NCBI RefSeq assembly: GCF_009796745.1
Contig: NZ_CP047024.1
Coordinates: 930,001-994,000, forward strand
DNA from: Paraglaciecola sp. L1A13
Lineage (GTDB): Bacteria; Pseudomonadota; Gammaproteobacteria; Enterobacterales; Alteromonadaceae
Direction of reading: 5' to 3'
DNA: 64,000 nt
Made by a program: the position numbers and the translations under genes. Below, in pieces: positions 10,941-32,693 of this stretch. The stretch's first letter is position 1. Each line of letters begins with the position of its first letter. The notes under the pieces were generated by a model that was given only the letters and a program-made list of their open reading frames with translations, was not told where the DNA came from and ran no database searches.

Positions 10941-11622
10941 TTATAACTTGTTCGATTCGCTCATAAATCAAAGCTTCCCTGCTGCTATCGTTATTGGCTG
11001 TACTTTGGATCGCATATTCAAAGTTATCGTCTGCAAGTAACACTTTTAGCTCTGTTTGAATGTATTCGTATAGTTCTTTAGGCGCTGCGTTTAATTCGTT
11101 AACTATTGCCTCTCTACCATCAAATATATTTAATAAGTCTTCAATATCGTGACTGGCGAGTGCATCTCCATTTCCTCGTCCTTTGTAGGCTTCAAGTTTC
11201 GTTCCAATAAAATATTCAGGCCTAACCAAAGATATAGTGAGTTGTTCATTTAATGCATAAGGTTCTGCAGTATCTAACGCTGGTTTATACCAGCGATTGC
11301 TAAATCCCAATATACTTTCATCTATGGGCATAAAATCCACTTCGAGCTCGCCTAGCGACATACGACAAATTACAGGTTCATCCATGCTTTCTTTGAATCC
11401 TTTCTGCCTCAATTGAACTTGAAGCTGTGCCCAAGCTGCGTAAGAGGCAATATTAACAATGAGGTCCACATCATCAGTGTACCTAATTTGCTCTTTAGTA
11501 AATTCATCAGTTACCAGCAACCCAGTGGTACAACCCCCAACAAAAACCACGTCATTTAACATGCCACCTAATGCTTCTGCGACTTGTACTAACATTGCCT
11601 TTTGTAAATTAATAATACTCAT
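10930..11622 (-). CDS. AbiEii-like nucleotidyltransferase (putative toxin)
   Basis: 230 residues. Residues about 23-60 carry the nucleotidyltransferase signature: FVGGCTTGLLV, then YTDDVDLIV (the paired Asp metal ligands), then a third acidic strand at ELEVDFMPID. Near residue 145, YFIGTKLEAYKGRG and SHDIEDLLNIFDGR match the helical part of AbiEii/DUF1814 transferases. Toxins of this group modify tRNA with nucleotides and are paired with an upstream winged-helix regulator. Here the upstream gene overlaps by ATGA and contains an HTH, so the two form a likely toxin/antitoxin-type pair. The pair is followed directly by the PP2C-like frame and pglZ. Confidence 0.75.
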   Translation of the reverse strand: MSIINLQKAMLVQVAEALGGMLNDVVFVGGCTTGLLVTDEFTKEQIRYTDDVDLIVNIASYAAWAQLQVQLRQKGFKESMDEPVICRMSLGELEVDFMPIDESILGFSNRWYKPALDTAEPYALNEQLTISLVRPEYFIGTKLEAYKGRGNGDALASHDIEDLLNIFDGREAIVNELNAAPKELYEYIQTELKVLLADDNFEYAIQSTANNDSSREALIYERIEQVINER

Positions 11623-12266
11623 ATGTTTTGATTGAATAACTTTGCCAATGTATCAATGGCAAAATTTCTTTCTCGTGGTTTGCCCAACCTTACAGCGTCT
11701 GTTAGGGCTAAAAAGGCGTACATTCGTCCATCTTGTCTGACGGCTTGAAAAATATTTGAATGTAATGGCTCAACGGTTAAACCTTTAGTTTTACCTTTGG
11801 CATATGGCCAAACTGGGGCCAATTCACCTGACGTCATTAATTTCCCCTGTAACACAGGCGCAGCTATAGAAGTGGCAATACCTCTAGTTAACTCGCCTTC
11901 CTTTGCAGGGAATACGTATCTGATCCCATAGGCTATAAATTCCAGTAAGGCTTTTGAATTTGTTTTTGGAATGCCTAGGCGCCTATCGTTTTTTGCTAGC
12001 CCTACATCGTACATTCTTTTCAAGCTCAAACTGATTTGAGATTTACTAATGCCCGTATCCGCGGCCAAGGAACGCACTGAAAAACGACTTTCGAAATATT
12101 CTCTACTTATTCCTAAACGCCCAATTTCTGAGTTACCCAAGTCATCAGTCCAATCTTCAAACGAATCATTGGTTAATATCAAATCACTCACACTTAAGCT
12201 TTTTTCAAAAAACTCTGCGTGAAGCGAAATCAGTTTAAGTAGTACTACAACATCTTGACTTTTCAT
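11619..12266 (-). CDS. Winged-helix regulator, probable antitoxin for the AbiEii-like gene
   Basis: 215 residues. Residues about 60-95 (FSVRSLAADTGISKSQISLSLKRMYDVGLAKNDRR) form a clear MarR/wHTH DNA-binding domain. The rest (AYGIRYVFPAKEGELTRGIATSIAAPVL...) resembles the C-terminal half of AbiEi-like or DUF-type antitoxin regulators. It overlaps the downstream transferase by four bases. A 26-bp palindrome lies 18-43 bases upstream of the start and is the natural candidate for its autoregulatory operator. The function as an antitoxin is inferred from the operon pattern. Confidence 0.65.
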   Translation of the reverse strand: MKSQDVVVLLKLISLHAEFFEKSLSVSDLILTNDSFEDWTDDLGNSEIGRLGISREYFESRFSVRSLAADTGISKSQISLSLKRMYDVGLAKNDRRLGIPKTNSKALLEFIAYGIRYVFPAKEGELTRGIATSIAAPVLQGKLMTSGELAPVWPYAKGKTKGLTVEPLHSNIFQAVRQDGRMYAFLALTDAVRLGKPRERNFAIDTLAKLFNQNI

Positions 12267-12434: not shown

Positions 12435-13769
12435 TTATTGATAAAAATCCGTATTATCTTCTAATGCTTCTCCGCACACTTCACAGTACTTGGCGTACCT
12501 ATCGTTAGGTGAATTACATTCATAACATACACTTACATCATCTTCATGTTTTAGCGTTTCTGTACAGGCGTCACACTCCAACTGATACACCGATGCGATG
12601 GTTTCGCAGGTAGGGCATACAATTATCAGAGATTTCTCATCATGGTAAAATCTGGACTCCATGATTGGCCCAATACGCTCTATCACACCGAAACGTTGTA
12701 TGTTTTCTCCATAGTCTAATAGCAATGTTTCGGACTTTGATTTATGCAGTCGCAAGCCCCGTCCCAGAATTTGCAAAAACAGACCAGGGCTAAGAGTGGG
12801 TCTTGCCATCACTATACAAGATAACCTTGGAGCATCCCAACCAGTGGTCAAGGTCGCGACGTTAATTAACCCGTTTTGCTCACCAACTTCAAAGTCATTC
12901 AACCACTGTTTACGCAATGTTTTTTCTGTTTTAGCGGTGATAAGTGGGAAATGAAACCCGAATGTATTTAACACGTCGGCAAATATTTCTGCTTGCTGCA
13001 CCGAGCTGGCATAAAATACTGTGGGTAGAGATGCATTGGTTTTATTAAGCCAGTCTTGCACTATGTCTGTCACCACTGATTCTATAGCGGTGACTGCTTG
13101 CAACTCAGTTTGCACAAAGTCCTGCTTTGTTCGTCTAACTTTGCTGGTATCCACTACGGCTTTGAAGTCAGTTTCCACTGCCCGCAACGGACATAAATAT
13201 CCAGTACTTTGCAATTCATCAATACGCTTTTGATAGATCAGTTTTTTAAATAGTTGATTGTCATCATCGCCGTAAATATTGCCTGTTTTTGTTCTAAATG
13301 GCGTAGCAGTAAAACCAAGTAAAAATGGATTTTTACCGTGGAGCTGAATTGTACTTATGATGAACTGATAACGGGTTGTGAGTTCGGGGGATATTAGATG
13401 CGCCTCATCAACGATAACGATATCCCAATCGGGGAATTCGCCAATCTCTGCAATGATGGAATCTCGACTGGCAGAAGTGACTTGCTTAATTTCTTTTCGC
13501 TTCAGTCCAGCGCAATATATGCCTACTTTGGCTTCTGGCCATACCGTTATTAACTTTACTGCGTTTTGCTCAACTATTTCCTGAGTATGCCCCAAAATCA
13601 ATACTTTCGTTTCAGGTTTAATTAACAATGCTTCTCGGATAAATTCAGCAAAAACAACCGTTTTACCACTTGCAGTTGGCAACACGCAAAGCCCAGCGTT
13701 TAGATTATTTAGCAACCAAAAGTTGATTAACTCAGAAACAGTTTCTTGCTGATAGGGGCGTAATTCCAT
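12435..13769 (-). CDS. Superfamily 2 DEAH-box helicase with C-terminal zinc ribbons
   Basis: 444 residues. Motif I (PTASGKT) is at about residues 30-36, motif II (VDEAH) about 118-122, the SAT-like TATPFRTK about 155, and motif VI (QILGRGLR) about 340. This is the RecD-less SF2 layout of UvrB/type III restriction-like helicases (RAD25/SSL2 group). The tail has several Cys pairs: CPTCETIAS, CDACTET, CYECNS and CEVCGE, forming two zinc-ribbon-like folds that may bind nucleic acid. Its ATG overlaps the stop of the preceding gene (TAATG), so the two are coupled. Helicases of this type are frequent in defence islands, but this pairing with an RX4H protein I do not recognise as a named system. Confidence 0.85.
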   Translation of the reverse strand: MELRPYQQETVSELINFWLLNNLNAGLCVLPTASGKTVVFAEFIREALLIKPETKVLILGHTQEIVEQNAVKLITVWPEAKVGIYCAGLKRKEIKQVTSASRDSIIAEIGEFPDWDIVIVDEAHLISPELTTRYQFIISTIQLHGKNPFLLGFTATPFRTKTGNIYGDDDNQLFKKLIYQKRIDELQSTGYLCPLRAVETDFKAVVDTSKVRRTKQDFVQTELQAVTAIESVVTDIVQDWLNKTNASLPTVFYASSVQQAEIFADVLNTFGFHFPLITAKTEKTLRKQWLNDFEVGEQNGLINVATLTTGWDAPRLSCIVMARPTLSPGLFLQILGRGLRLHKSKSETLLLDYGENIQRFGVIERIGPIMESRFYHDEKSLIIVCPTCETIASVYQLECDACTETLKHEDDVSVCYECNSPNDRYAKYCEVCGEALEDNTDFYQ

Positions 13770-14230
13770 TACTTTATCTTTCTCAAATTCACCAACTCAC
13801 CATGTACTTTCCAAAAATCGGCGGTTTTAAACATGCCAAAGAGTTTTATTTGATTTGAATACATGTGTTCAAATACGTACCAATTAACATTTTTGAACTT
13901 TATCTTTTGAATATCAGCATGGCCTGCAACATTTCTAATGTGATAAAAATAACTTTTTAAAATGTTGTTTTTGGCATTGTGCAAGTGGATGGTATTTTTA
14001 CTTTCAACAGAGACAGTCAAATCGATATTATCGAAAGCGACTTTAGCTTCACCCAAAGTAGCGTGAGCATGAAGTTCGAATGAATATTGATCTTTTAGTC
14101 GACGAAAGGATTTACCTATACGGATATTAAAACTCTGATTTAGAAGATCGCCGTTTTCCCACAGCAATATAAGCTTCTCATAAAAATCTGCCAATTCTTT
14201 ACGCGAAAATTGTTGTGGGTTTGCGTTCAA
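13769..14230 (-). CDS. Unknown protein with an RX4H motif (possible HEPN), coupled to the helicase
   Basis: 153 residues starting at TTG (14230). TTGA overlaps the stop of the small PglX-tail ORF upstream by four bases, so translation is probably coupled. I recognise no family with confidence. Residues about 98-107 read YFYHIRNVAGHAD, which contains Arg-x4-His in a helical context, the active-site motif of HEPN ribonucleases. The rest is rich in aromatic and Lys/Asn residues with a predicted alpha/beta mix. As the partner of a helicase it could be an effector nuclease or an adaptor. That role is inference from one motif and from gene order. Confidence 0.55.
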   Translation of the reverse strand: MNANPQQFSRKELADFYEKLILLWENGDLLNQSFNIRIGKSFRRLKDQYSFELHAHATLGEAKVAFDNIDLTVSVESKNTIHLHNAKNNILKSYFYHIRNVAGHADIQKIKFKNVNWYVFEHMYSNQIKLFGMFKTADFWKVHGELVNLRKIK

Positions 14231-14361
14231 ACTACCACCGCCTTGCCATGGCTATTTTTTACATCGTCGAGTTCTAGGTTAATGCGTATTTCTGAATGGT
14301 GATTGATTTGCGCAGGGCAGTATTCTGAGATTTCACGCTCTAGCTTCCTGTGTAATTTCAA
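14227..14361 (-). CDS. Short PglX C-terminus-like ORF (pglX 3'-end repeat, copy 3)
   Basis: A 44-residue frame starting at TTG (14361). Its upstream region (14348-14372 on the plus strand) is identical at 24 of 25 positions to that of copy 2 and includes AAGGAA just before the start. It opens LKLHRK and ends with INLELDD, VKNSHGKAV, which mirrors the PglX tail (ITLDLDD ... VKNIHGVAV) with about 30 residues deleted between the two parts. The stop overlaps the TTG of the next gene. It may be a decayed duplication scar or a functional mini-protein; the retained start signals argue for translation. Confidence 0.65.
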   Translation of the reverse strand: MKLHRKLEREISEYCPAQINHHSEIRINLELDDVKNSHGKAVVV

Positions 14362-14442
14362 TTTATTTCCTTGCCTAACTTATTAATGCAAATATCATTC
14401 TGTTATCTAGCTTTGTATATTTCCATTAGTAACTCAAAATAC

Positions 14443-16221
14443 CTATTCAACCAACGACAGGGAACAGCATCCTTTTTTCCAGCGCTGGTTACAAGAACTG
14501 CACGTCTGATAAAGCACTTGCTCAAACTCTTGTTCTTCCGTCAGTGGTTTTCTAAAGTAAGGGAATTTAGCATTAAATAGCTTCATCAGTTCCCCTGGAA
14601 CTAAATGCCAGCTATCGTTATTTTCTGAAACATTTGAACGAATAATCACACCCAAGCCACTTTTAATTTTCACTGGGCCTGAGCGTCTCGACTTTTTTAT
14701 TGAATCATCCCCAATTGCTTGAATTGAGAATTCCAAATCATAAATTTCTAGCTCAGAGTCAACTTCTTCATCCATTGATTTAGCTTTAACAGTCACTATC
14801 AAGTTTTCATCAATTAAGTAAGTAACATCAATCCGTTCTTTTAGAGGGGGGAAGTCCTTATTCACCATGACGACCATGTTGCCGTAACTAGTCCTATGGT
14901 CCGCAGAGGCAGATTTAGCAATCATTTGTGGACGTTTAAAGCTGAGTACAGCCTTGCCGTCTCTGGGGTCAGCACAATACATTGCTTGTTCTGTCACCAA
15001 AAAATCCCCGCGTTTTGGTAAAGATGTACCTTCTGGCACTATGGTAATCATAGAATTCCTAGCTTCTACAATTTCAAAAGGCTTAGCCAGCGTTATTGGT
15101 GGATTATCATGAGCGATCCAAGCTGCACCGTGAGATATTATTCTGTCACCAATTTCAGATATGTGTAGCCGTTCAAAGCCAAATAGTTCTTGTAAGCGCT
15201 GTCTAATAATTGGCATATTTACCATTCCCCCTGTCGCTAAACAAAAGGAAAGGGTTTGAATATCTACGTCAGCAAATTCAATAGACAGTAATGTTTCAAT
15301 TTCTCTCAGGCCAGCATTTACAATTTTTTCAGCAATTTGATTAAGTGTTTTTCGGTCAAGAGAAAACTCAATATCAGCTTCATCATCGTTGGCCTTAAAA
15401 TATTCAGGAACATAAATCAGTGCTGAATCCTTTTTAGAAAGTACTATTTTTGCTCTTTCACACTCTTGTAATAGTCGTGCTTTCATACCGGGTAATCGAG
15501 GCTTGAAAGTTGATTCTGTCCAATTAAATTTTTTAGCGTGCTCATCTTCTACACATTTCAATATGATTTCATCAAGATAGTCACCACCCACCTTGTTGTT
15601 ACCTCGATTGATAATCTGTGAGATCGCTCCATTCTTAATTTGGCATAAGGTAAGGTCGAGAGTCCCGCCACCCCAGTCAAAAACCAAAGTCATTTTTCCT
15701 TCATTTCTGCGCAGTTCAAGTTCCATATCAGGCAAACTACGATAATAGCCGTATAATGCTGCTAACGGCTCATGCACAAACGCTTCGATATGAATGTCGG
15801 CATTAAGAAATGCTTCTCGTAAGGCGCGCCTACCTCTGCCGTCCATAGCCACCGGGATCGTGACTACCGCATATTGTAAATTAGCAATATTATCGTCATC
15901 TTCACTATCGGCATGCTCTTTCAAGTAGTGTATTAAATCGGTTACAACGTCTTTAGGATTTTTATTAACACCTCCAACATTTATAACATCACTACTTAAA
16001 TACTTCTTTGGCCCCTTTACAGTGCTACCTTGTACGCCACTTTCAGTTTGATCTACTTTTAACTTGGCTTTAGTACCACATATAACATTACCGCCAGCGT
16101 AATGAACTACGGATGGATGAGGTCTATCTCGTTCAGTAAATGATTTAACCAACCCTTTGGCCGTTACAACTGATATCAGGCTATTGGTAGTACCTAAATC
16201 GATCCCTATTTTTTCAGCCAT
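14443..16221 (-). CDS. Hsp70/DnaK-like ATPase of the accessory module
   Basis: 592 residues. The actin-fold ATPase domain is intact by motif: phosphate-1 loop IGIDLGTTNSL at the N-terminus, phosphate-2 loop VFDWGGGTLDLT at about residues 179-190, and the adenosine motif FCLATGGMVNMP near 335. After about residue 390 a beta-rich segment takes the place of the substrate domain (SMITIVPEGTSLPKRGDF resembles DnaK). No long lid with the DnaK tail is seen. The end instead has a Cys cluster (CSSCNQRWKKGCC), a possible metal site. It is clearly not the housekeeping DnaK: no dnaJ or grpE lies beside it. It overlaps the preceding coiled-coil gene by 16 bases, so these two and the C2H2 protein form one operon. 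Substrate and role are unknown. Confidence 0.9.
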   Translation of the reverse strand: MAEKIGIDLGTTNSLISVVTAKGLVKSFTERDRPHPSVVHYAGGNVICGTKAKLKVDQTESGVQGSTVKGPKKYLSSDVINVGGVNKNPKDVVTDLIHYLKEHADSEDDDNIANLQYAVVTIPVAMDGRGRRALREAFLNADIHIEAFVHEPLAALYGYYRSLPDMELELRRNEGKMTLVFDWGGGTLDLTLCQIKNGAISQIINRGNNKVGGDYLDEIILKCVEDEHAKKFNWTESTFKPRLPGMKARLLQECERAKIVLSKKDSALIYVPEYFKANDDEADIEFSLDRKTLNQIAEKIVNAGLREIETLLSIEFADVDIQTLSFCLATGGMVNMPIIRQRLQELFGFERLHISEIGDRIISHGAAWIAHDNPPITLAKPFEIVEARNSMITIVPEGTSLPKRGDFLVTEQAMYCADPRDGKAVLSFKRPQMIAKSASADHRTSYGNMVVMVNKDFPPLKERIDVTYLIDENLIVTVKAKSMDEEVDSELEIYDLEFSIQAIGDDSIKKSRRSGPVKIKSGLGVIIRSNVSENNDSWHLVPGELMKLFNAKFPYFRKPLTEEQEFEQVLYQTCSSCNQRWKKGCCSLSLVE

Positions 16222-17351
16222 TTAATTGTTCCTTCAATATTTTCTAACACTAAATCAATGTGATGGATGGCGACATGTGTTTTTGGTGTATCTTTGTTTA
16301 ACGCATGAAGCGACGTTTGGAGTAGAGGCATAACATCTTCTTCCAGTAAATTTAGGGTTTTTGACTTAACTTTGTTGTGATCATCTTTTAAGTGCACAAC
16401 ATCGGCAGTACCCAATTTTTGCTGACTATCTAAGCTATTTTCTAACTGGGCAATCTTCTCTTTTAACTGCTTAAGCTCAATCTCATAGTTTTCAGTTTGA
16501 GTCTCATTATCATTTAACTCCTGCATCAATGAATTAATTGTCTTTTTTTGCTTAACTAATTCTTTCTGCTCATTAATCCTAATACGCTCACTTCCACTCA
16601 CTTTATCGGTAAAATATTTGATGAGCTGAAATAGCTTTTTCGACTCAGGTTTTGAGAGAATTTGATTCAAAAACAAGGCTATATCTGTTTTTGTTTCTTC
16701 TTCAATGACTATATCTTTTGAATATTGGTGGCAAAGGAATTCTATGACGTCAGTAGGCGCTACTCTTCCTTTACTAAGGCACCACAATATTCCAAGTGTT
16801 GAAATGTTCTGCTGCTGTTTTTTAACTGTCGCTGGACTAATCGGTTCACCGGTATTAGTGAGGTTAGATTCATCAACATCTTCATTTTGAAGCCTAATTA
16901 CGCTCTTATATTGAGCGTCAAGATTGGCTGCGAACCTTTCTAAATCCACTTTCCCTTGGCTTCCTGACGTCAAAGAAAAATAAATACTGGTTTGAGTGTC
17001 AGCACTCATATTGAATATCAATATACTGATTAATCTTGCACAATCTTCGACAATAACAGTGCCTACACCATGCTTTTTATGCTCAATGGCAATTAGCACA
17101 ATTTGTACAATTAATGAAAAACTAGGATCCACATTTAATAATATTGGCTTCAATTCAGCTAATTGTTTTGCACTTAAAGGTTTTAAATCTATCGAATTTT
17201 TAAGCAAGGATTGCTGGCTAATTGACAGTTTTGTAATAGTTGTCGATTTTTTTTCTTTTAACTCTTTTGACGTTTTCGAGGCAAATGAATGCAACAGTTC
17301 AAAAATAGAGCCCGTTAACGGTGCTCGCTGTGGCTTTTTAATATCATTCAT
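16206..17351 (-). CDS. Unknown protein with long coiled coil, partner of the Hsp70-like protein
   Basis: About 381 residues from ATG 17351; an in-frame ATG at 17384 overlaps the previous gene and is the alternative. I recognise no family. Residues 1-220 look globular and helical. About 255-325 form a strong coiled coil (EQKELVKQKKTINSLMQEL..., NYEIELKQLKEKIAQLENSL). The last 45 residues form a compact helical end (LLEEDVMPLLQTSLHAL ... DLVLENIEGTIKWLKK). The coiled coil followed by a helical end is reminiscent of a GrpE-type exchange factor, but the sequence does not show GrpE motifs, so this is only an idea. The stop lies 16 bases inside the Hsp70-like gene. Confidence 0.6.
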   Translation of the reverse strand: MNDIKKPQRAPLTGSIFELLHSFASKTSKELKEKKSTTITKLSISQQSLLKNSIDLKPLSAKQLAELKPILLNVDPSFSLIVQIVLIAIEHKKHGVGTVIVEDCARLISILIFNMSADTQTSIYFSLTSGSQGKVDLERFAANLDAQYKSVIRLQNEDVDESNLTNTGEPISPATVKKQQQNISTLGILWCLSKGRVAPTDVIEFLCHQYSKDIVIEEETKTDIALFLNQILSKPESKKLFQLIKYFTDKVSGSERIRINEQKELVKQKKTINSLMQELNDNETQTENYEIELKQLKEKIAQLENSLDSQQKLGTADVVHLKDDHNKVKSKTLNLLEEDVMPLLQTSLHALNKDTPKTHVAIHHIDLVLENIEGTIKWLKK

Positions 17352-17371
17352 ACTTATTCTTTTTCCACATT

Positions 17372-18442
17372 TCAGATAGCCCATTCACTGCGCTTTATTT
17401 TTTTAGCAAAAGCCGATTGAAGATCAACATCGCCACATTGCATGGCTTTTTGATATACGACTAGATTCAGCTTTTCTTTTTCTTCTCTGGTTAAATCCCC
17501 CGAGCGTAATAGCGCATCTACTTCTTTAAGAAACGATTGGGCACTCTCATGCTCTGGGTACTTCTCTGTTATCAATCTAACGGTATGTTCAGTTATTCTA
17601 TCAATCGGTAGATCAAAATTACCTTGACCAACTCCTCGCAAAATATCGACCTTTTCATGTCTTAATAAAAACACTGTAACACTTTCAATAGATGGCATTA
17701 GTCCACTAAAAGTAATGGAATTTAAATCATTTTTGATAAAATAAATGATATTACATATGACTTCTGCAAGTTGAGAATTAAATGAACTTAACTTTTCCAA
17801 AGAAACATTTAATTTCGCTTCATGGTCTTCGTAGTTGATATAACTAGTCCGCCCGTCTTTAGCCAAAATACCCTGTAAATAACAAACGATTCCCTCAACG
17901 TACTCTACTGCACTCTTATATTCTTTAACCGATTGAATAAAGTTATCTAAGGTTTCACTCGTAAACCCTCGGCCATTAAAAAACGACATAAAGCACTTAT
18001 CGATAGCATTAATTTCGTCAGATGCAGCAAGTTTGACATCCAGCTCAAATTTTCTTGTTACTTTTGAGTTGATGAGTTCGATGACATAAAATTGATTGTC
18101 AGAAAATTTCATTGTCGAATTAAAAGCTTCAATCTCTGTTTCTTCACCATTCACTCTGATTGTTTGGTAGTTAGCACCAATAAGGGTGCCTAAAAGAGTT
18201 TTGTCACGACAAATAAAGCGAGTTGAACGGAGTTCGCGATTATTGATATACAACTGAGGTTGTTTAGTTGGGTGTTGCTGCCACACGTGTAATATAAGAT
18301 CTTGCCTAGTTGCAAAACTCGCCTCACACACTTGGCAATAATATCTTGCAGGCTCTGAGCTGATCCCCTCCATAAATTCAGGAATAACTACTGAACCACC
18401 AGAATTACCAGGGTCAATAAATGCGGATAAATAGTACGCCAT
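17372..18442 (-). CDS. Unknown protein with an N-terminal C2H2-type zinc finger
   Basis: 356 residues, start ATG 18442 with AAGGA about 11 bases upstream. Residues about 33-56 read YYCQVCEASFATRQDLILHVWQQH: Cys-x2-Cys, then a Phe and Leu at the usual finger positions, then His-x4-His, a C2H2-type finger that is rare in bacteria. The remaining 300 residues are mostly helical with no motif I know. The gene ends 13 bases past the alternative start of the coiled-coil gene and is thus the first cistron of the three-gene Hsp70 unit. The finger suggests nucleic-acid or protein recognition, perhaps the sensor of the unit (inference). Confidence 0.6.
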   Translation of the reverse strand: MAYYLSAFIDPGNSGGSVVIPEFMEGISSEPARYYCQVCEASFATRQDLILHVWQQHPTKQPQLYINNRELRSTRFICRDKTLLGTLIGANYQTIRVNGEETEIEAFNSTMKFSDNQFYVIELINSKVTRKFELDVKLAASDEINAIDKCFMSFFNGRGFTSETLDNFIQSVKEYKSAVEYVEGIVCYLQGILAKDGRTSYINYEDHEAKLNVSLEKLSSFNSQLAEVICNIIYFIKNDLNSITFSGLMPSIESVTVFLLRHEKVDILRGVGQGNFDLPIDRITEHTVRLITEKYPEHESAQSFLKEVDALLRSGDLTREEKEKLNLVVYQKAMQCGDVDLQSAFAKKIKRSEWAI

Positions 18443-18535
18443 ATATTCAATCGTCCTTGTTAAAATGCATAAGCGCGGGTGATGTGTTTTTATGTAATCG
18501 CAGGGAATTGGGCATTTATCATGTAAAAAATGACA

Positions 18536-19054
18536 CTATTCAGGAGTTTGCTTTGCGTCCACTTCACTCTTACGTTTTTTAATCTTAATTTGGCGAGTTG
18601 GTAATGGTACTTTCGGGAGATTTAATCTACTGCACATATTGGCCAAATATTCTCGCCAATATGGCCAAACATGGTAACTTACGTTTTCAAGGGCAAAAAC
18701 CTTCAAACCATCTGGGTTAACATCCCCTTTAGTCATCAGATACTCAGCACAAAAAGTGGCTTCAATTTGCGCTTTTATTTCGTCTTCTTTATTGTCATCA
18801 GCTGTAACAAACCGACAACCAACCAGTAAATTGACTCTAAAATATTGTCTCGAATCTCCATTTTCTTCTACAGTGATAACTTCCGAGGTTTTAATTTGGT
18901 GCATGAACTTAAAGCGCACTCCATCTATATCTGTGCGCTTCGGGTCCCAATCATCAGCACATGAGGCATTAGTGCTCTTAATATAAATATCATTAAACAC
19001 CAAGCTATCTTTGACTGTTTGAAAATCTGGATCATCAACCATATGCAAGTTCAT
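18536..19054 (-). CDS. SecB-like chaperone of a HicAB-SecB (TAC) module
   Basis: About 172 residues. The central strands (GVRFKFMHQIKTSEVITVEE, YFRVNLLVGCRFV, IEATFCAEYLM) and especially the C-terminal helix (NVSYHVWPYWREYLANMCSRLNLPKVPLPT) match the SecB fold pattern of LFPYARE...V.R.G.P...L. It follows hicB with an overlap. This gene order, toxin-antitoxin-SecB, defines toxin-antitoxin-chaperone modules, where the SecB paralogue protects an aggregation-prone antitoxin. The start is uncertain (19078 TTG, 19054 or 19042 ATG). 19054 is chosen for GAGGGG just upstream; 19042 would give the ATGGTTGA overlap seen elsewhere in this window. Confidence 0.75.
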   Translation of the reverse strand: MNLHMVDDPDFQTVKDSLVFNDIYIKSTNASCADDWDPKRTDIDGVRFKFMHQIKTSEVITVEENGDSRQYFRVNLLVGCRFVTADDNKEDEIKAQIEATFCAEYLMTKGDVNPDGLKVFALENVSYHVWPYWREYLANMCSRLNLPKVPLPTRQIKIKKRKSEVDAKQTPE

Positions 19055-19544
19055 TCCCCTCATCTTCAGATATATCAATACGTCTAAGGTCTACTACGTT
19101 CGATTTCGATTTACTGACTATTCGCAACGAATCACTCGAATATTGGGTTCCGAGAGCATAATCGTTTTTCTCTAGCTTAGTTGTCTTAGCCGCAAAATGG
19201 TCACCCAAACACATAGACAAACAGTTAACCAACAAATGATTCAAACTTACTTCTTCAAAGTCAGCCCAACCAGCAAATGAAGCATGCATTGACTTCGGCA
19301 TTCGTAATGTCACTCTGCCACTGAAATTTTGTTCTTCGATCATAGGTGAAGGCATGACTTTGCCTTGCTCTTGCATTAGCTCAGCAGTAGTTTCAATTGA
19401 ATCTAATGCTAATTGATAAGCCTCTTCAAATGTTTCAGCATATTCAGCAACGTCTGGCAATTCTCTAATTTTTGCTTCAAAAAAGGTTTCTCCATCAAAA
19501 TCACCTTTTCTTACTGTAATATTGTATAAACTTGCATCTACCAT
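19035..19544 (-). CDS. hicB: HicB-type antitoxin with C-terminal extension
   Basis: 169 residues. Residues 1-70 are the partial RNase-H-like HicB fold (FFEAKIRELPDVAEYAETFEEAYQLALDSIETTAELMQ, then MPSP). Residues about 75-115 are a ribbon-helix-helix DNA-binding domain (GRVTLRMPKSMHASFAGWADFEEVSLNHLLVNCLS). An extra polar tail of about 45 residues follows, longer than in ordinary HicB. In toxin-antitoxin-chaperone systems such a tail (chaperone-addiction segment) is what the SecB-like protein binds. AAGGGA lies seven bases before the start. It should bind HicA and repress the operon. Confidence 0.85.
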   Translation of the reverse strand: MVDASLYNITVRKGDFDGETFFEAKIRELPDVAEYAETFEEAYQLALDSIETTAELMQEQGKVMPSPMIEEQNFSGRVTLRMPKSMHASFAGWADFEEVSLNHLLVNCLSMCLGDHFAAKTTKLEKNDYALGTQYSSDSLRIVSKSKSNVVDLRRIDISEDEGNELAYG

Positions 19545-19562
19545 TTTTTATCCCTTTTGAAA

Positions 19563-19847
19563 TCACTCAAGATATTCAATCAATTCTTTTTCATACTTTT
19601 CAAGTATTTTTATTATTTTCTTTATATAGGGGCGCTTGATCTCAGGATTTTTTCCATGATCACAATTAAACGCACCTGAAGTAAAATCTTCAATATGACA
19701 ATGAGTGAATACTTTATGTCCACCTCTTTTACCGTCTTTAACGGTAAAGCCTAATGACTCAAGGTGCTTTTTAACCTCAATACAACGCATTGAGGCTCCA
19801 GCTCCTTTAAGAGCCTGTATTACATCATCATACAAAACATTACTCAT
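19563..19847 (-). CDS. hicA: HicA-type mRNA interferase toxin
   Basis: 94 residues with the HicA double-stranded-RNA-binding-like fold: VKKHLESLGFTVKDGKRGGHKVFTH carries the catalytic His in the G-G/S-H position, and CDHGKNPEIKRPYIKKIIKIL matches the family end. It is somewhat longer than most HicA proteins because of added basic N- and C-terminal segments. HicA toxins cleave mRNA and stop growth. The gene is first in the operon, with hicB 18 bases downstream, the usual HicAB order. A palindrome over the predicted -10 box lies directly ahead of the ATG. Confidence 0.85.
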   Translation of the reverse strand: MSNVLYDDVIQALKGAGASMRCIEVKKHLESLGFTVKDGKRGGHKVFTHCHIEDFTSGAFNCDHGKNPEIKRPYIKKIIKILEKYEKELIEYLE

Positions 19848-19849
19848 GC

Positions 19850-19897
19850 GACACCATATATAGTGTCAAAGTTCCAAGAATGCAAATTGTACTGACA
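19850..19897 (-). promoter_or_regulatory. hicA promoter with overlapping palindrome
   Basis: On the minus strand a -35-like TTGCAT and a -10-like TATATA are separated by 17 bases. The -10 lies inside the inverted repeat GACAC-TATATATG-GTGTC (19850-19867 on the plus strand), which ends two bases before the hicA ATG. A ribbon-helix-helix protein such as HicB bound here would block RNA polymerase. The predicted transcript start is almost at the ATG, so the message may have a very short or no leader. Confidence 0.6.
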
Positions 19898-19917
19898 TAA
19901 AGCATATTTGCAATCAT

Positions 19918-20160
19918 TTACTTCACCGCCTTACCGTGAATGTTTTTCACATCCGCTAGCAAATTGCCGGATTTGCCGTAGTTTACTTTTACGCCGTCGT
20001 CGAGAGTGATGCGTTTTTCGGTCTGGTGTTTGAGTTGCTGGTCGAAGGTACGCAGTTCGGCTTGTTTTTGTTCCAAATTTTTTAAGGCTTTATCGGCAAA
20101 GTCTTTTTGTTTTGTATTACATTCGAGGATCTGTTGTTGCACGCTGCTGTGTAATTTCAA
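19918..20160 (-). CDS. PglX C-terminus-like ORF (pglX 3'-end repeat, copy 2)
   Basis: An 80-residue frame from TTG (20160) with AAGGAAG four bases upstream. From HSS near its start to the final HGKAVK it parallels the last 80 residues of PglX (for example QAELRTFDQQLKH, EKRITL, DDGVKVNYGKSGNLLADVKN), with roughly three quarters of residues the same by eye, including the identical stop position. It lacks all of the methyltransferase part. The 25 bases around its start match those of copy 3 with one mismatch. Either it is a left-over pglX end displaced by insertion of module A, or it is a true small gene making a free PglX tail that could compete with or assemble with PglX. Confidence 0.8.
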   Translation of the reverse strand: MKLHSSVQQQILECNTKQKDFADKALKNLEQKQAELRTFDQQLKHQTEKRITLDDGVKVNYGKSGNLLADVKNIHGKAVK

Positions 20161-20196
20161 TTTACTTCCTTGTGGTTACATGGGTAAAAGACGGGG

Positions 20197-20487
20197 TCAT
20201 TTTGCTGCTAACAACGCTTTTTCGAGTTTTTTAAACACAAGTTCACATTCTTCCGAATTCAATTCATATTCTGCTGTAAAGCGTTCGCCAGACCTTTCAT
20301 TGATCAACGAGAGCTTCTCCGACAACTCTAATACCAGAGGGATTATCATATCGAGTCCCTTGGTGTTTTCTCTCCAAACGTCTATTGCCAATCTGGTAAG
20401 CCCCGCAAGTTCGTTGCTATTAGAGTTACTGTTAATCAGCTTTAAAGCCTTGCGTTCGAGGTATATTCTATTCAAAAATTTATTCAT
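20197..20487 (-). CDS. Small helical protein, unknown, coupled to MNT-HEPN
   Basis: 96 residues, start ATG 20487 overlapping the MNT-HEPN stop by eight bases (ATGAATAA). No family is recognised. The sequence is predicted helical throughout, with a Ser/Asn-rich turn (NSNSNSNELAG) and basic N-terminus (NKFLNRIYLERKALK). Tight coupling suggests a small partner of the nucleotidyltransferase protein, perhaps its regulator or the missing half of a toxin-antitoxin pair. The pglX-tail repeat starts about 36 bases downstream. Confidence 0.5.
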   Translation of the reverse strand: MNKFLNRIYLERKALKLINSNSNSNELAGLTRLAIDVWRENTKGLDMIIPLVLELSEKLSLINERSGERFTAEYELNSEECELVFKKLEKALLAAK

Positions 20488-21130
20488 TTTGATATCCGTA
20501 AACTTTGTCTTTGATGTTGTTTGCCCACGCTAGCAACTTCTTTTCTACTTGAAATAACTCGGTCAATAATTCATCTGTAAATTTAGTTTTGTGCCCTCTA
20601 ATTGTTGCCCTACGACATTCAATGAGAGACTTATAGTATGTTTCACTAATTGGCGCAGAGAATTCACCCAACATCAGAGGAGCAAACTTAGAAAAGTTAA
20701 AGTTACCAGTTAACGCTTTAGATGCTGACATTCCGATATCTCTTAAAGTAAGCGCTACAATGCCTAGCTCATATATCTTAGATGGTGAATTATTTATGAT
20801 TTCTGCGATTGATGATTTCAGCAGTTTGGACAGGGCGCTTATTTCCGAATATGCATTAACATAATCACTTGGCTGACCTATTTTTCGAAGACAATCATTT
20901 GATACTGCGCTTGCTGATACGGGTATTGCGTCTAAGTATAAATGCCACGCAAATAGCGTTCCCTTCCGATATAATTCTTCAATTCGTTCTTTTGTATAAA
21001 CAGACCAATCAGGTGGAAACGAACTCAAGCCATCATTGCTTCTTATTATGAGTACATCAACGTCTGAGCCTGAGTCAAAATCCCCACTAACCAAAGAGCC
21101 GAACACATATCTCTCGCAACTATCATTCAT
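20480..21130 (-). CDS. MNT-type nucleotidyltransferase fused to HEPN-like helical domain
   Basis: 216 residues. Residues about 8-30 have the minimal nucleotidyltransferase motif: YVFGSLVSGDFDSGSDVDVLII, i.e. Gly-Ser then a loop and Asp-x-Asp. The C-terminal half (from about 90) is helical, and CRRATIRGHKTKF contains an Arg-x4-6-His arrangement as in HEPN proteins. Separate MNT and HEPN proteins form toxin-antitoxin systems in which MNT adds AMP to the HEPN ribonuclease. Here both look fused. The start overlaps the stop of the pentapeptide gene by four bases (ATGA), making one three-gene module. Confidence 0.7.
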   Translation of the reverse strand: MNDSCERYVFGSLVSGDFDSGSDVDVLIIRSNDGLSSFPPDWSVYTKERIEELYRKGTLFAWHLYLDAIPVSASAVSNDCLRKIGQPSDYVNAYSEISALSKLLKSSIAEIINNSPSKIYELGIVALTLRDIGMSASKALTGNFNFSKFAPLMLGEFSAPISETYYKSLIECRRATIRGHKTKFTDELLTELFQVEKKLLAWANNIKDKVYGYQNE

Positions 21131-21945
21131 CGCCTCGACAACCTTTTGACTAAGACTGATACAAACATGCCCATTAGAATAAACCTGCCAGTAACAGCTA
21201 AGTAAACTATAGACTTGTCAATCACTACTTTGGTCTCAATACCCAGAAATATTGAAAAAGCTGATGAAATAGATACGGATAATTCATTTCCTTGCATATA
21301 AATGTGAGAAGCCAAAAGCGCCACTACAATAACTATTGTCCGTAATAATTTTGGTAGAGACTCACCGTTGCCCCATAAAAAATCGAACAAAGAGAAAATA
21401 AAGTAATCCTTTATAGCCACAACTCGGTCAAAGAATCCTACATACTTCTTTTTATACCAACCATCTTTACCCCAGGCCGCTTTACTTAGATGGACTTTAG
21501 TCGCACTTAGCTCAGCCTTTATAGCCTTATTTACGCCTACATAGTCTCCCATTTGGGCAAAATTAACTCTCAATGCTTGTGCAAATTCAAGCGCTACGTT
21601 TTCGTACCCAGGAATATTGGTTTCAATTAATTTATTTGTGATTTTTGTATTGTTAAAGCGAGCATAGTCAAAAGTACTACCAGTAAACTCGCTACCTCTA
21701 AAACTTGAGTTTTTAAATTGAGCTCCAATGAATTTACAGTCGATAAATTTACAATTTCGGAAATAACAATCATCAAAAACAGTGTACATAAATTCTATGT
21801 TTTCAAAGATTATTGAAACAGCACTTACTCTTGTAAAAATATGCTTGTTAAACGTTTGCTTAGGATCTAAATTTTTACAAAACTCAATATCAGTCAAGTA
21901 ACTCGGCGAGTTAGTTTTGGTTTCTTCTGGCAATAAGCTACTCAT
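21127..21945 (-). CDS. Pentapeptide-repeat protein with C-terminal membrane segments
   Basis: 272 residues. Residues about 45-105 contain pentapeptide repeats (A/C/S at i-2, F at i): YFRNCKFIDCKFIGAQFKNSSFRGSEFTGSTFDYARF. After a helical linker, residues about 195-272 hold two hydrophobic helices (KLLRTIVIVVALLASHIYM and IVYLAVTGRFILMGMFVSVLV) ending in Lys-Arg-Leu-Ser-Arg-Arg. Similar pentapeptide proteins end in a two-helix potassium-channel domain. Here the selectivity-filter sequence is not present, so it may be a degenerate pore or a membrane anchor. It begins one base after the pglX stop. A membrane-acting defence effector is a reasonable guess. Confidence 0.75.
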   Translation of the reverse strand: MSSLLPEETKTNSPSYLTDIEFCKNLDPKQTFNKHIFTRVSAVSIIFENIEFMYTVFDDCYFRNCKFIDCKFIGAQFKNSSFRGSEFTGSTFDYARFNNTKITNKLIETNIPGYENVALEFAQALRVNFAQMGDYVGVNKAIKAELSATKVHLSKAAWGKDGWYKKKYVGFFDRVVAIKDYFIFSLFDFLWGNGESLPKLLRTIVIVVALLASHIYMQGNELSVSISSAFSIFLGIETKVVIDKSIVYLAVTGRFILMGMFVSVLVKRLSRR

Positions 21946-21946
21946 G

Positions 21947-24900
21947 TTACTTCACCGCAACGCCATGGATGTTTTTTACATCCGCGAGCAGATTGCCAAA
22001 TTTGCCGTAATTGACTTTTACGCCGTCGTCGAGGTCGAGGGTGATGCGTTTTTCGGCGTGGTGTTTGAGTTGTTCGTCGAAGGTGCGGAGTTCGGCTTGT
22101 TTTTTCTCCAGGTCTTTTAAGGCTTTTTCGGCAAGGCGTTTTTGCTCGGTGCTGCCTTCTAGAATATCTTGCTCTAGGCTGCTGTGTTGATGTTCGTACT
22201 TGCCCATTAATGGGGTGACGTACTCGGTACGCATACGGGAGAGTGTGCCTTCGTTATAGCGATGTAGGTATACCAAACATTCAAAGGCTTTTTCTTTGCC
22301 TGAGCTAAACAACCAATAGATAGGGCGTTTTTTGTAGGTTTTGCAATGGTCTTTAAAGAACTGGCTTGAAAAGTAACGACGGATGGTGTCCATCGCCCCT
22401 TCGCCCTTCTTGGGTTTCAAGGCATGTAAACACAGGCTTTCTGCGACAAATTCCAGATTTTCGTTTAGGTGTTCAGCACCCCATACAATTTTTACAAATT
22501 CACGGAAGCGCGTGGTGGCATCGTCATCAAATAACCAGTCTTCTGATGCTAAGGGGATAATCCCGTCATCATCGGCTGGGAATGTTTGGTAAGTATCCTC
22601 AGCAGCCAACTCTTTAAAGCCTTCATTGCCTGAGTGGGCGTAAACCAACCCTTTTCGGTCTAAAGAGTAGCGGCCCATCATGCAGCCAATAGAATATGAG
22701 ACTAAGTCAAAAGCTTTATCTGATATATGTCTTATGAAATTTTTATCACTGCCCTGTTTAGATGAATATTTATAATCTGGGTTTGAGTAAAGTGTCACAT
22801 ATTTGTTATCTACAGCACTAGAGATACTGTCAACTAAGCCATAGGCTTTAATAAATAAGCTATTTATTGACTCTTCAATATATTGTAAGCCACTAACATC
22901 CTGCGCTTCTGTTTGTAGCTCAAAATTGAAGTTATCCTTAATTCTGTTCGAGTTGTAATTAAATATGGGCAATTTTTGAAAACCATATGAAATTTCTAAA
23001 TTGTCATAGTCGACTTTAGATATCTCGATTGCACTTTTTACTAAATTTTCAAGTTCTGTTCTATCAGGCTCTATATCTTTTTTTAGTATTGGAAGGTTTG
23101 CTACATTACCAACCTGCATGTTCGCAGAAGGATTGAGAGCTTGCATAAACTCGCTGCTTAATTTCGAGCACATAAAACCTGCAACTAAATATCTATCTTT
23201 TTCGTCTGGGAACGCTGACGAACCTCCAACATCAAATAAATAACCTTGTTCACAAACTCGAACACCAAATTCGTAGGAGCTAATAAGGGACCAAGTTAAC
23301 GATGGCTTGAAAAAATACTCTATATTCTGTGGGCGTGATTTTAATTTTCCATTTACAAAAAAATTCCGAATTTCATGTCCATCATTTTCCCAATTGACAA
23401 CATTCTCATTATTGCCATACCACTTTTTAAAACCACCACCCTTGTTGTATGGGAACCACTTCTTATCTAATTCTTTTGCTTGTTCGATAGATTCTAAATT
23501 CAACCCTAATTTAGAGTGATCAATCTCAAACCAGAATCTAACAAATCTATCATTATCGGCTGTTGCCATACCTTGTCTCGGCTTTGCAAACGTACCTAGT
23601 AAATCGCCAGTTAAAAAAGCTTCTCTCATCTTATCATTTAACCAAAAAGCAATTATCGAACTAGGAAGCTTGATAAAATCCGCTGAAAAACATTGCGAAC
23701 CTAAGTTATTTTCTAATTTATTTTTGAGTCTATTGGGCTGATCACCAGCTGAGCCAAGATAGCCTAAATCGAAAAAACTCCCTTTGTAATTAGTTACACC
23801 TTTTTTGATAGTAAAAGCCACAAATTGAACACTAGCCATTTCAAAAAAAGCGGTATAAGAAGGTTTCACTGATGACGATATAGAATGATTTAATAAAATG
23901 TTTTTTCGCACTTTTTCATAACTTGAGATAAACATCCAAGTTAGAGGGGTCACCAAGCAATATTCACCACCAATGTCCGTCAATTCACTAGTTCTTTGTA
24001 TAAACATCGAATAAAGATTTTGGGAATAATTTTTATAATTTTGCTTAGAACACTCTTTCAAATCATAAACGAAGTATTTATCGTCTAGAAAAGGCGGATT
24101 TGCCACTACCGCATTATATTTCTGAGCAAGGGCAATGGCCTGATACACGATGGGTAATAACTCTATAGCGGCTTGTTTAGCCGCTGGGTCGGTGCTTTTT
24201 TGTTTGACTTGTAACAAATCTTTTAGGGCAAGCAGATTGGCTAAGTATTGGTTGTCTATTTGAATCAATGAGCCAAGGGTTTTAGCCTGTAAAAATGATG
24301 TCTTTAGATAATTTAATAATTGCAGGTAGTCGTTATAGATTCCCGCCTGCGCGGGAATGACGCCGGTTGGCTCCTCAAACAAGCCCCCTGTTGTGCCTTT
24401 TTGGTGTTTGTCCTCTAAATCCAATGCTGACCAGAGTCTTGGGATATCCAGCCCTTCGGTAGATTGCATTGAATAAACATTAAGATGCACGTCACCGTCT
24501 TGTACTCGCTGGAAGATGCGCCTGTCATCTTCACGGGCTTTCATCATTAGGGCAAAACCTGCAAGCTGGGCTGCTCTGTCGTCGATGTCTAAGCCGTAGA
24601 TATTTTTGGTTAATATCAGTTCAGGTATTTCACGTAAGCGATAACCGCGCTCCAAGTAAATTTCACGCAAAACCTCGTAAACTTCAACCAAGATATGACC
24701 TGAGCCTGCGGCGGGGTCGAGCACTTTGATTTGCTCTGGGTCAATACTGGTTGGAGTGATGGCTTTAAGCTGCTCGACAACCTCAGGGGTTTGCTCGGCA
24801 GGCTCAATGTAGTATTCCATTTTGCCTTTAAGCTCGGACTCCGGATAGGTTGCCAGCCATTGTCTGCCCACTGAGTTTTGCACCAGATATTTAACTATCC

Positions 24901-25633
24901 AATTGGGTGTAAAGAGCTGGGTCGCCGCCGGAATATCTTCCGATTTGACTACTTTACCGATAACAGCATCTTTATGCTCAGAGATATAAAACTGATATAG
25001 CCAACCAATAACTTCTATTTGGCTCCAGTCTTCCTCTGGGATGTCGTTTACCAAGTCTTTTAAGATAGAGTCGGTTTTGGTGAGGTTGTCAGGCAGTAGT
25101 AACTCAGTGGCATCATCTAATTGTTCAAACATGAAGGGCATGATTTTATGCAAGTGATGACATTGACCGAGTAGTAGCTCGCGATACAACTCTTCTTCTT
25201 TGTCACCGGCCAGTTGTAACTCGATAATGTGGCTTTTATCTAACTCTAGTGAGTCTGCTACATCAGAGGCATGGCTTAAAATTTCAGGCAGGCTATCTGG
25301 ATTTGTTGGGTGAGATAACACTCTGAATCCATGGTCTAGGTATTCATGTATCTCCATATAACGAAGTGCTGCAAAACGGTTAAACCAGGTATAGGCCATT
25401 TCACGTAAGAACAACTCGTAGCCTTTTGAAGCAACACGCTTTTCAAGTTGCTGGCGCTGTTCACCCTGTTTGCGGCTAAACACCCGACCTTCAATTAGTG
25501 CGGCCCCACCTTCGAACTGCACCGGCTCAACATTATGCTGGTAAATGCCCAAATGCGCTGCGCGCTTTTTAACGGCCCCGATAAACTGGCGACGGGCCTT
25601 AGGCGCGTAGGCTTTTAAGTTTTTGGTGTTCAT
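21947..25633 (-). CDS. pglX: PglX, BREX-1 adenine-specific DNA methyltransferase
   Basis: 1228 residues, full length for the family. Motif I for S-adenosylmethionine (VLDPAAGSGHIL) is at about residue 305 and motif IV (AVVANPPFLD) at about 510, so it is an N6-adenine methyltransferase. The region from about 570 to 880 is the target-recognition part. The last 90 residues are a coiled coil plus a conserved tail, and it is this tail that recurs twice downstream. PglX marks host DNA and takes part in sensing unmarked phage DNA. An in-frame repeat encodes GVIPAQAGIYN at about residue 427. AGGAAG lies seven bases before the start; brxC ends about 20 bases upstream. Confidence 0.97.
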   Translation of the reverse strand: MNTKNLKAYAPKARRQFIGAVKKRAAHLGIYQHNVEPVQFEGGAALIEGRVFSRKQGEQRQQLEKRVASKGYELFLREMAYTWFNRFAALRYMEIHEYLDHGFRVLSHPTNPDSLPEILSHASDVADSLELDKSHIIELQLAGDKEEELYRELLLGQCHHLHKIMPFMFEQLDDATELLLPDNLTKTDSILKDLVNDIPEEDWSQIEVIGWLYQFYISEHKDAVIGKVVKSEDIPAATQLFTPNWIVKYLVQNSVGRQWLATYPESELKGKMEYYIEPAEQTPEVVEQLKAITPTSIDPEQIKVLDPAAGSGHILVEVYEVLREIYLERGYRLREIPELILTKNIYGLDIDDRAAQLAGFALMMKAREDDRRIFQRVQDGDVHLNVYSMQSTEGLDIPRLWSALDLEDKHQKGTTGGLFEEPTGVIPAQAGIYNDYLQLLNYLKTSFLQAKTLGSLIQIDNQYLANLLALKDLLQVKQKSTDPAAKQAAIELLPIVYQAIALAQKYNAVVANPPFLDDKYFVYDLKECSKQNYKNYSQNLYSMFIQRTSELTDIGGEYCLVTPLTWMFISSYEKVRKNILLNHSISSSVKPSYTAFFEMASVQFVAFTIKKGVTNYKGSFFDLGYLGSAGDQPNRLKNKLENNLGSQCFSADFIKLPSSIIAFWLNDKMREAFLTGDLLGTFAKPRQGMATADNDRFVRFWFEIDHSKLGLNLESIEQAKELDKKWFPYNKGGGFKKWYGNNENVVNWENDGHEIRNFFVNGKLKSRPQNIEYFFKPSLTWSLISSYEFGVRVCEQGYLFDVGGSSAFPDEKDRYLVAGFMCSKLSSEFMQALNPSANMQVGNVANLPILKKDIEPDRTELENLVKSAIEISKVDYDNLEISYGFQKLPIFNYNSNRIKDNFNFELQTEAQDVSGLQYIEESINSLFIKAYGLVDSISSAVDNKYVTLYSNPDYKYSSKQGSDKNFIRHISDKAFDLVSYSIGCMMGRYSLDRKGLVYAHSGNEGFKELAAEDTYQTFPADDDGIIPLASEDWLFDDDATTRFREFVKIVWGAEHLNENLEFVAESLCLHALKPKKGEGAMDTIRRYFSSQFFKDHCKTYKKRPIYWLFSSGKEKAFECLVYLHRYNEGTLSRMRTEYVTPLMGKYEHQHSSLEQDILEGSTEQKRLAEKALKDLEKKQAELRTFDEQLKHHAEKRITLDLDDGVKVNYGKFGNLLADVKNIHGVAVK
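24339..24358. repeat. REP/dRS3-like palindrome inside pglX
   Basis: ATTCCCGC-CTGC-GCGGGAAT is a perfect 8-bp stem with a 4-base loop. It is of the kind seen in dispersed repeats of many proteobacteria (ATTCCCGC...GCGGGAAT). Read in the pglX frame it gives the familiar VIPAQAGI peptide. It keeps the reading frame and sits between the conserved methyltransferase blocks, in a position likely to be a surface loop. Confidence 0.7.
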
Positions 25634-32631: not shown

Positions 32632-32693
32632 AACACTTTTTACCTTACTTCAGTTTCTAAGTAAAAAGTGTCTACAAAGTTAGGGGAAGATCA

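What the first reader, a model, noticed from the sequence alone, without database searches (positions are those of the whole stretch)
14227..25633. pglX 3' end is repeated at the borders of accessory modules inside the BREX locus
The tail of pglX recurs at 19918-20160 (80 codons, most residues the same, identical stop position) and at 14227-14361 (44 codons with an internal loss). The three tails separate the accessory genes into modules: pglX-tail / A / tail / B / tail / C / pglZ. This is what would remain if each new defence module entered by recombination at the pglX 3' end, bringing its own pglX end and displacing the old one, much as islands reuse a tRNA 3' end. It suggests a cassette-loading hotspot with a readable order of acquisition: C oldest, then B, then A.
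Basis: partly seen in the sequence, partly recalled or inferred. Interest (0 to 1): 0.85.

Follow-up and report, generated by a model that had tools for sequence, protein, structure and literature searches.

The report
BREX core-gene stubs bordering defence modules
Inside this phage-defence locus, short leftover ends of the core genes pglX and pglZ sit between blocks of accessory defence genes, most likely scars left when blocks were spliced in from other BREX loci.

Summary
T2 (19918-20151) is a real copy of the pglX end; T3 (14227-14361) is a decayed one. A pglZ-head scar after C1 (12337-12436) had been missed.

The stubs are remains of other pglX alleles: dN/dS against the locus's own pglX is 0.08-0.28 in the 6 stubs tested. 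In Paraglaciecola sp. MB-3u-78 the block after T2 directly follows that genome's own pglX; identity jumps from about 82% to 97-100% at the stop.

Of 58 BREX loci with accessory genes and one pglX, 9 carry a pglX-tail stub and 4 a pglZ-head stub; internal pieces gave one 16-nt match. Sampling is biased: 7 of 46 loci ranked by likeness to T2, but 0 of 9 plasmid and viral-contig loci, and 0 of 8 further genome loci. pglX tails also lie outside BREX in four genomes of three families, next to PDC-M25 or HEC-02 genes in three.

Best reading: blocks are exchanged between BREX loci, anchored in a core gene on one side and joined illegitimately on the other. The proposed order (C, B, A) is not supported. 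T6SS effector arrays are the closest known case.

The parts
29936..30550 (-). brxA
   Evidence: Pfam BrxA E 3e-45
29342..29929 (-). brxB
   Evidence: PADLOC BrxB E 2e-62
25654..29322 (-). brxC
   Evidence: PADLOC BrxC E 0
21947..25633 (-). full-length pglX (allele X)
   Evidence: PADLOC PglX, residues 1-1221
20197..21945 (-). module A: pentapeptide-repeat 272 aa, nucleotidyltransferase 216 aa resembling HalB of the Hailong system, 96 aa
   Evidence: Pfam; NCBIfam HalB E 6e-9, below its cut-off
19918..20151 (-). T2: pglX 3' stub, about 80 codons, of another pglX allele
   Evidence: 190/234 nt to X, 196/234 to the L003 tail
20147..20172 (-). 26-bp head of T2 (AAGGAA plus in-frame TTG), shared with T3
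18536..19847 (-). module B: HicA 94 aa, HicB 169 aa, 180 aa matching the SecB-annotated gene of plasmid locus L135 (31% identity)
   Evidence: Pfam
18475..18500 (-). possible vestige of a pglX tail at the B/D border (tentative)
   Evidence: score 32 against the L003 stub, 1 of 300 shuffles as high; weaker against X and the L003 tail; alignment
14443..18442 (-). module D: 356 aa, 392 aa, Hsp70-like 592 aa; not in L003
   Evidence: Pfam HSP70 E 3e-41
14227..14361 (-). T3: decayed pglX 3' stub; the next gene's TTG start overlaps its stop
14348..14373 (-). 26-bp head of T3, shared with T2
12435..14230 (-). module C1: 153 aa and ResIII/helicase 444 aa
   Evidence: Pfam; 93.7% nt to L003
12337..12436 (-). 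pglZ 5' scar (start codon and about 30 codons, decayed) directly after C1
   Evidence: in L003 the same C1 end runs into pglZ
10191..12266 (-). module C2: PDC-M21A 215 aa, PDC-M21B 230 aa, and ORFs of 129 and 101 aa that match the two halves of one 249-aa ORF of L089
   Evidence: PADLOC
7477..10194 (-). pglZ
   Evidence: PADLOC
5282..7465 (-). brxL
   Evidence: PADLOC

Best explanation
The pglX-pglZ interval of this type I BREX locus was built by recombination with other BREX loci. Incoming DNA carried a donor interval (the end of pglX, one or more accessory modules, the start of pglZ). One side was anchored by homology in a core gene; the other was joined illegitimately, at least in one case at microhomology, close to the facing end of a core gene. 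Each such event leaves a stub of the displaced or donor core gene (pglX 3' end, pglZ 5' end, or both fused) at the new internal border. Stubs persist because the pglX end often holds the ribosome-binding region, and sometimes the start codon, of the gene behind it. They are short because long repeats would recombine and delete the module. Shown: the stubs, their borders, their allelic origin, and the transfer of B and C1 between divergent loci. Inferred: the anchored-plus-illegitimate step, the reason for retention and the length limit.
For: Stub statistics: 9 of 58 gapped single-pglX loci have a copy of their own pglX tail in the interval; internal pglX tiles 0; pglZ head 3 of 58 automatically (L040, L053, L066) plus the window by targeted alignment. 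Profile search: only the last 80 aa of pglX (6 loci, E at most 1e-4) and the first 80 aa of pglZ (L040, and L053 at 3.5e-4) hit; 10 other 80-aa segments gave nothing at 0.01. Allelic origin: dN/dS of stub against own pglX 0.13 (T2), 0.17 (L003), 0.17 (L049), 0.28 (L057), 0.08 (L069), 0.13 (L053). Transfer: window against L003, B and C1 about 93%, but the last 1.1 kb of brxC 70%, pglX 5' part 75%, pglX 3' part 84%, pglZ-brxL 71%; the jump lies at the pglX stop. Illegitimate join: L053 and L066 hold a pglZ head (29 codons) fused to a pglX tail (about 21 codons) at ACGG..AGTT, which both genes share. The brxC-pglX interval shows the like: brxC tail 1 of 28, pglX head 2 of 28, internal tiles 0. 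The next gene starts inside the stub or within 12 nt of its stop in 8 of 13 stubs (T3, L003, L053, L057, L066, L142, L162, L163). Scar loci have longer intervals (10 against 48 loci, p 0.002).
Against: Stubs are rare outside the set ranked by likeness to T2: 0 of 9 gapped viral-contig and plasmid loci and 0 of 8, so 0 of 17; of two relatives found by the pglX end, L089 has one and L090 has none. E. coli shows almost no second copy. Four occupied Acinetobacter plasmid loci are clean, so modules can enter without leaving a stub. The scar loci are not all independent: window, L003 and L089 are relatives and L053 and L066 share one scar. Five loci carry two pglX genes, so decay of a tandem copy could give stubs too. 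No recent before/after pair was found. The shared T2/T3 head is unexplained. Five of 13 stubs do not have the next gene starting at the stub. Low dN/dS could also mean that stubs themselves are under selection.
Confidence: 0.66

Rival explanations
1. Tandem gain of a complete pglX (own or foreign) followed by decay of the downstream copy until only its 3' end, which serves as ribosome-binding region for the next gene, is left.
For: Five loci have two pglX genes, in L005 with a 563-codon ORF between them. The next gene often starts at or in the stub (8 of 13).
Against: All stubs are at most about 80 codons of roughly 1200; tiles further upstream in pglX gave no hit in the 58 single-pglX intervals. 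pglZ-head scars and pglZ::pglX fusions are not explained. Duplication of the own gene with neutral decay does not fit the dN/dS, but a foreign tandem copy is not excluded.
Confidence: 0.2
2. Site-specific loading at the pglX 3' end, as islands reuse tRNA ends, with readable order C, then B, then A.
For: B begins at the pglX stop both behind T2 and behind the L003 pglX. A is absent from L003 while B and C1 are present.
Against: No recombinase identified among the window's interval genes; no tRNA in the window; left ends of stubs vary; D sits inside the shared block; a pglZ-head scar lies after C1; brxC-tail and pglX-head scars exist elsewhere.
Confidence: 0.07
3. The stubs are small functional genes or translated leaders that travel as the native 5' end of the module, so modules are units of the form pglX tail plus genes. 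This can be true together with the best explanation.
For: T2 and T3 each have AAGGAA and an in-frame TTG start. In L053 the pglZ::pglX fusion is an open frame of 46 codons (read from the sequence). pglX tails outside BREX precede PDC-M25 or HEC-02 genes in three genomes.
Against: The stubs in L024 and L066 have frame breaks and T3 has internal losses; 49 of the 58 loci have modules without a detectable tail stub.
Confidence: 0.2

Closest known systems
Sequential displacement of T6SS effector-immunity modules in Vibrio cholerae (PMC5361080; abstract start and passages seen)
   Same: New modules inserted at a cluster displace an older gene, its 3' end is shifted back, and homology-facilitated illegitimate recombination is proposed ('perhaps') as the route.
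   Different: There the displaced gene is a toxic effector and the retained genes are immunity genes; here the displaced gene is the BREX methyltransferase, scars come from both flanking core genes, and defence modules accumulate.
Accessory genes embedded in type I BREX: BrxU between brxC and pglX (PMC8565348; passages seen); ATPase and DUF4435 genes next to pglZ in Salmonella StySA (PMC9009780; passages seen)
   Same: Same kind of insertion intervals.
   Different: The passages seen do not mention core-gene stubs at borders; here several modules are stacked.
Orphan Rhs/CDI toxin tips (recalled, no call)
   Same: Displaced modules keep a short piece of the parent gene.
   Different: There the piece belongs to one polymorphic toxin gene; here it is the end of an unrelated core gene.
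Genomic islands at tRNA 3' ends (recalled, no call)
   Same: A gene 3' end is repeated at borders.
   Different: They use an integrase and a fixed att core; neither was found in this interval.

Membership tests
Type I BREX locus | brxA, brxB, brxC, pglX, pglZ, brxL in order | tested here: met
Sequential-displacement arrays (T6SS type) | remnant 3' end of the displaced core gene at the module border | tested here: met
Sequential-displacement arrays (T6SS type) | remnant is a different allele, not a copy of the locus's own gene | tested here: met
   the 6 stubs tested of 10
Sequential-displacement arrays (T6SS type) | newest module next to the core gene, older ones shifted back | tested here: inconclusive
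   A fits; D and C2 do not
Sequential-displacement arrays (T6SS type) | one homologous and one illegitimate junction | tested here: inconclusive
   microhomology in L053/L066 only; no recent pair found
tRNA-like site-specific integration | recombinase with the module and a fixed crossover core | tested here: not met
In-situ duplication with neutral decay | dN/dS of stub against own gene well above that of functional genes | tested here: not met
   0.08-0.28 in 6 stubs; X against the L003 tail is 0.06
Hailong system (module A) | HalB-type nucleotidyltransferase with its HalA effector | tested here: inconclusive
   HalB E 6e-9 but below the curated cut-off; HalA not tested

The most novel reading that the evidence does not exclude
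The pglX 3' end is a portable 5' tag: defence modules assembled in BREX loci travel, within and out of BREX, as units that carry the end of pglX as their translation start region. Core-gene stubs then form a genome-wide tracer of which defence modules came from BREX. The pglX tails in front of PDC-M25 and HEC-02 genes, with no BREX gene in the 14-17 kb fetched around them, would be such exported units.
Probability: 0.3. Interest if true: 0.78.

Novelty: new variant of a known kind. Interest (0 to 1): 0.6.

Why it matters
How defence genes come to cluster is an open question. These scars show junctions, not just co-occurrence: modules B and C1 are about 93% identical between two loci whose core genes are about 70-84% identical, and stubs of both facing core-gene ends mark the borders. 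They may also give a cheap search key: a pglX tail far from pglX stood next to candidate defence genes in three of the four genomes found; in the fourth the module is missing. One weaker hit (G1022) was not examined for neighbours.

Tried and rejected
Rejected: stub as an unrelated coiled coil (profile). In-situ duplication with neutral decay. The 26-bp T2/T3 head as an element spread in the family: 294 other genomes gave one 3-mismatch hit, with one hit also for the reversed control in that genome; it lies at the start of a lipoprotein-like gene. The head as a piece of a pglZ start: best scores around the 99th percentile of background over 96 contexts, not convincing. A tail vestige before C2 in the window: not above shuffles (195 of 500 as high). 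The first self-search timed out and was rewritten. The weak G1022 hit (E 1.5e-4) has no BREX gene in the 19 kb fetched and was set aside. Short-ORF tail matches in L013 and L020 had no anchored pglX and were not followed. Dropped before the count: 13 loci without an anchored pglX ORF and 13 without pglZ, of 122; 33 of the remaining 96 have gaps under 600 nt; 5 with two pglX genes were set apart. pglX-head hits of L034 and L058 were discounted because those queries begin upstream of the start codon. dN/dS was not computed for T3, L024, L066 and L089 (short or frame-broken).

Literature: no account of core-gene stubs in BREX turned up in searches, which cover open PMC text only; five papers were looked into by passages, none was read whole.

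Full report
1. Setting. A genome of the same genus, G016, has a contig of the same length and match as Paraglaciecola sp. MB-3u-78 (L003), so the two are taken as one. On the minus strand the window holds brxA, brxB, brxC, pglX, then 11.7 kb of accessory genes, then pglZ and brxL.

2. The repeats. T2 is a copy of the pglX end (82.8% over 203 bp by BLAST, E 1e-43; 190 of 234 aligned sites). T3 is a decayed one. In that self-search at E 0.01 the only other hits are the 26-bp head shared by T2 and T3, and a 62-bp inverted match outside the locus. The head is absent from pglX. A further scar is a decayed pglZ start directly after C1.

3. Comparison with L003. There a pglX, itself split over several ORFs, is followed directly by module B, then a pglX tail of about 35 codons, then C1, then pglZ. 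Window T2|B aligns with L003 pglX-end|B. In 60-nt windows identity is 73-85% in the tail, 97-100% just after the stop, and 90-100% through the rest of B. T2 is not the L003 allele: T2 to L003 196/234, X to L003 217/240, X to T2 190/234. B and C1 are 93-94% identical between the genomes, the last 1.1 kb of brxC 70%, pglX 5' part 75%, pglX 3' part 84%, pglZ-brxL 71%. So these modules moved separately from most of the core genes. A, D and C2 are missing from L003; D lies inside the shared block and C2 beyond the pglZ scar, so position does not give a simple order of arrival.

4. Survey. For each locus its own last 240 nt of pglX was searched in its own downstream DNA, with up to ten other pglX tiles as controls. 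First pass: 10 of 69 usable loci hit (one of them, L005, through a second pglX); 13 of 612 control tiles hit, 9 of them in L005 and 4 short or repeat-like ones in L032, L037 and L054. Second pass, limited to the pglX-pglZ interval: 122 loci tried, 96 with both genes, 63 with gaps of 600 nt or more, 58 after setting apart five loci with two pglX genes. pglX tail: 9 of 58 (window, L089, L003, L024, L049, L053, L057, L066, L069). pglZ head: 3 of 58 (L040, L053, L066), plus the window by targeted alignment. Internal pglX tiles: 0; internal pglZ tiles: one 16-nt match (L068). pglX head: L034 and L058, where the query included DNA upstream of the start. A profile search on translated intervals agreed in kind: pglX tail 6 loci at 1e-4, pglZ head L040 (and L053 at 3.5e-4), ten other segments none at 0.01. 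In the brxC-pglX interval, 28 loci with gaps: brxC tail 1 (L037, 75% over 69 bp), pglX head 2 (L057, L058), internal tiles 0; 94 of 122 loci had a shorter gap or lacked an anchor, brxC or a long pglX.

5. Sampling bias. The 58 are the window, L089 and L090 (relatives found by the pglX end), 46 genome-contig loci ranked by likeness to T2 (L069 was found through its stub), 3 viral-contig and 6 plasmid loci. pglX-tail stubs: 7 of 46, 1 of 2, and 0 of 9. A further 8 gapped loci from class and phylum samples have none. E. coli: 398 places in 397 records of 395 of 5426 genomes. The frequency of 9 in 58 is therefore an upper figure, and the nine are not all independent (window, L003 and L089 are relatives; L053 and L066 share one scar).

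6. Origin. Stub against own pglX, dN/dS: T2 0.13, L003 0.17, L049 0.17, L057 0.28, L069 0.08, L053 0.13, with dS 0.41-0.89; for comparison X against the L003 tail 0.06. So most divergence arose under purifying selection, most simply in functional pglX genes before the stub was made; selection on the stub itself is not excluded.

7. Junctions. In L053 and L066 (two Accumulibacter genomes) a pglZ start of 29 codons is fused to a pglX end of about 21 codons at a shared ACGG..AGTT stretch; in L053 the fusion reads in frame. In L040 a pglZ head stands alone. pglX stubs run from 12 to 80 codons. The next gene starts inside the stub or within 12 nt of its stop in 8 of 13 stubs; L024, L049, L069, L089 and T2 do not fit, though T2 has a short ORF starting at its stop.

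8. Tails outside BREX. In 369 and 398 genomes sampled over class and phylum (sets that overlap), four genomes of three families have a pglX tail with no BREX gene in the 14-17 kb fetched: G531 and G395 (same genus, same flanking sequence), G768 and G709. In G531 it precedes PDC-M25A/B genes; relatives of the ATPase sit inside the BREX intervals of eight surveyed loci. In G768 and G709 it precedes HEC-02A/B genes; as both hold the same module type they may share one origin. In G395 no such ATPase ORF follows the tail. These could be exported modules or remains of lost BREX loci; the data do not separate the two.

9. Mechanism. The simplest account is exchange of interval contents between BREX loci, one end homologous, one illegitimate, as proposed for T6SS arrays (PMC5361080, passages seen). 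The conserved end DLDDGVKVNYGKFGDLLAEVKAVTG offers homology between distant loci. Retention through the ribosome-binding region, and the length limit through instability of long repeats, are inferences.

10. Novelty. The kind of process is known in T6SS; its presence in BREX, with scars from both flanking core genes and with tails outside BREX, was not found in the searches made (of PMC12839542, PMC12707154, PMC9009780 and PMC8565348 only passages were seen).

11. Odds. On re-checking, the tails outside BREX proved less independent, and the unbiased samples smaller, than first written; the odds for the best explanation went from 0.68 to 0.66, for the novel case from 0.35 to 0.30, and interest from 0.62 to 0.60.

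Noticed in passing
window 3334-4542: Tyrosine integrase (402 aa) just downstream of brxL; may mobilise the whole island. No tRNA was found in the window.
   Followed up: no
window 31494-32651: IS3-type transposase upstream of brxA (rve domains); a 62-bp inverted match links 32590-32651 to 1772-1831.
   Followed up: no
window 10191-10940: ORFs of 129 and 101 aa match the two halves of one 249-aa ORF in L089; the third gene of C2 looks broken.
   Followed up: partly
window 14443-18442: Module D with an Hsp70-like protein, a 392-aa and a 356-aa protein has no match in PADLOC; possible defence candidate.
   Followed up: no
L142 8058-8117; L141 8529-8588; L162 5986-6066; L163 8172-8335: pglX tails outside any BREX locus, in front of PDC-M25 (L142) or HEC-02 (L162, L163) genes; in L141 no ATPase ORF follows.
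   Followed up: partly
L005, L117, L118, L121, L127: Two tandem pglX genes with conserved ends and divergent middle; L117 and L118 give the same numbers throughout.
   Followed up: partly
L003 1452-10240: pglX of Paraglaciecola sp. MB-3u-78 is split over several ORFs, with minus-strand ORFs (538, 121, 100 aa) between its parts, possibly an insertion element, so its BREX may be inactive.
   Followed up: no
L129 323-3887: pglX of Vibrio parahaemolyticus plasmid pLH80-1 is annotated as two overlapping ORFs, so it is probably broken.
   Followed up: no
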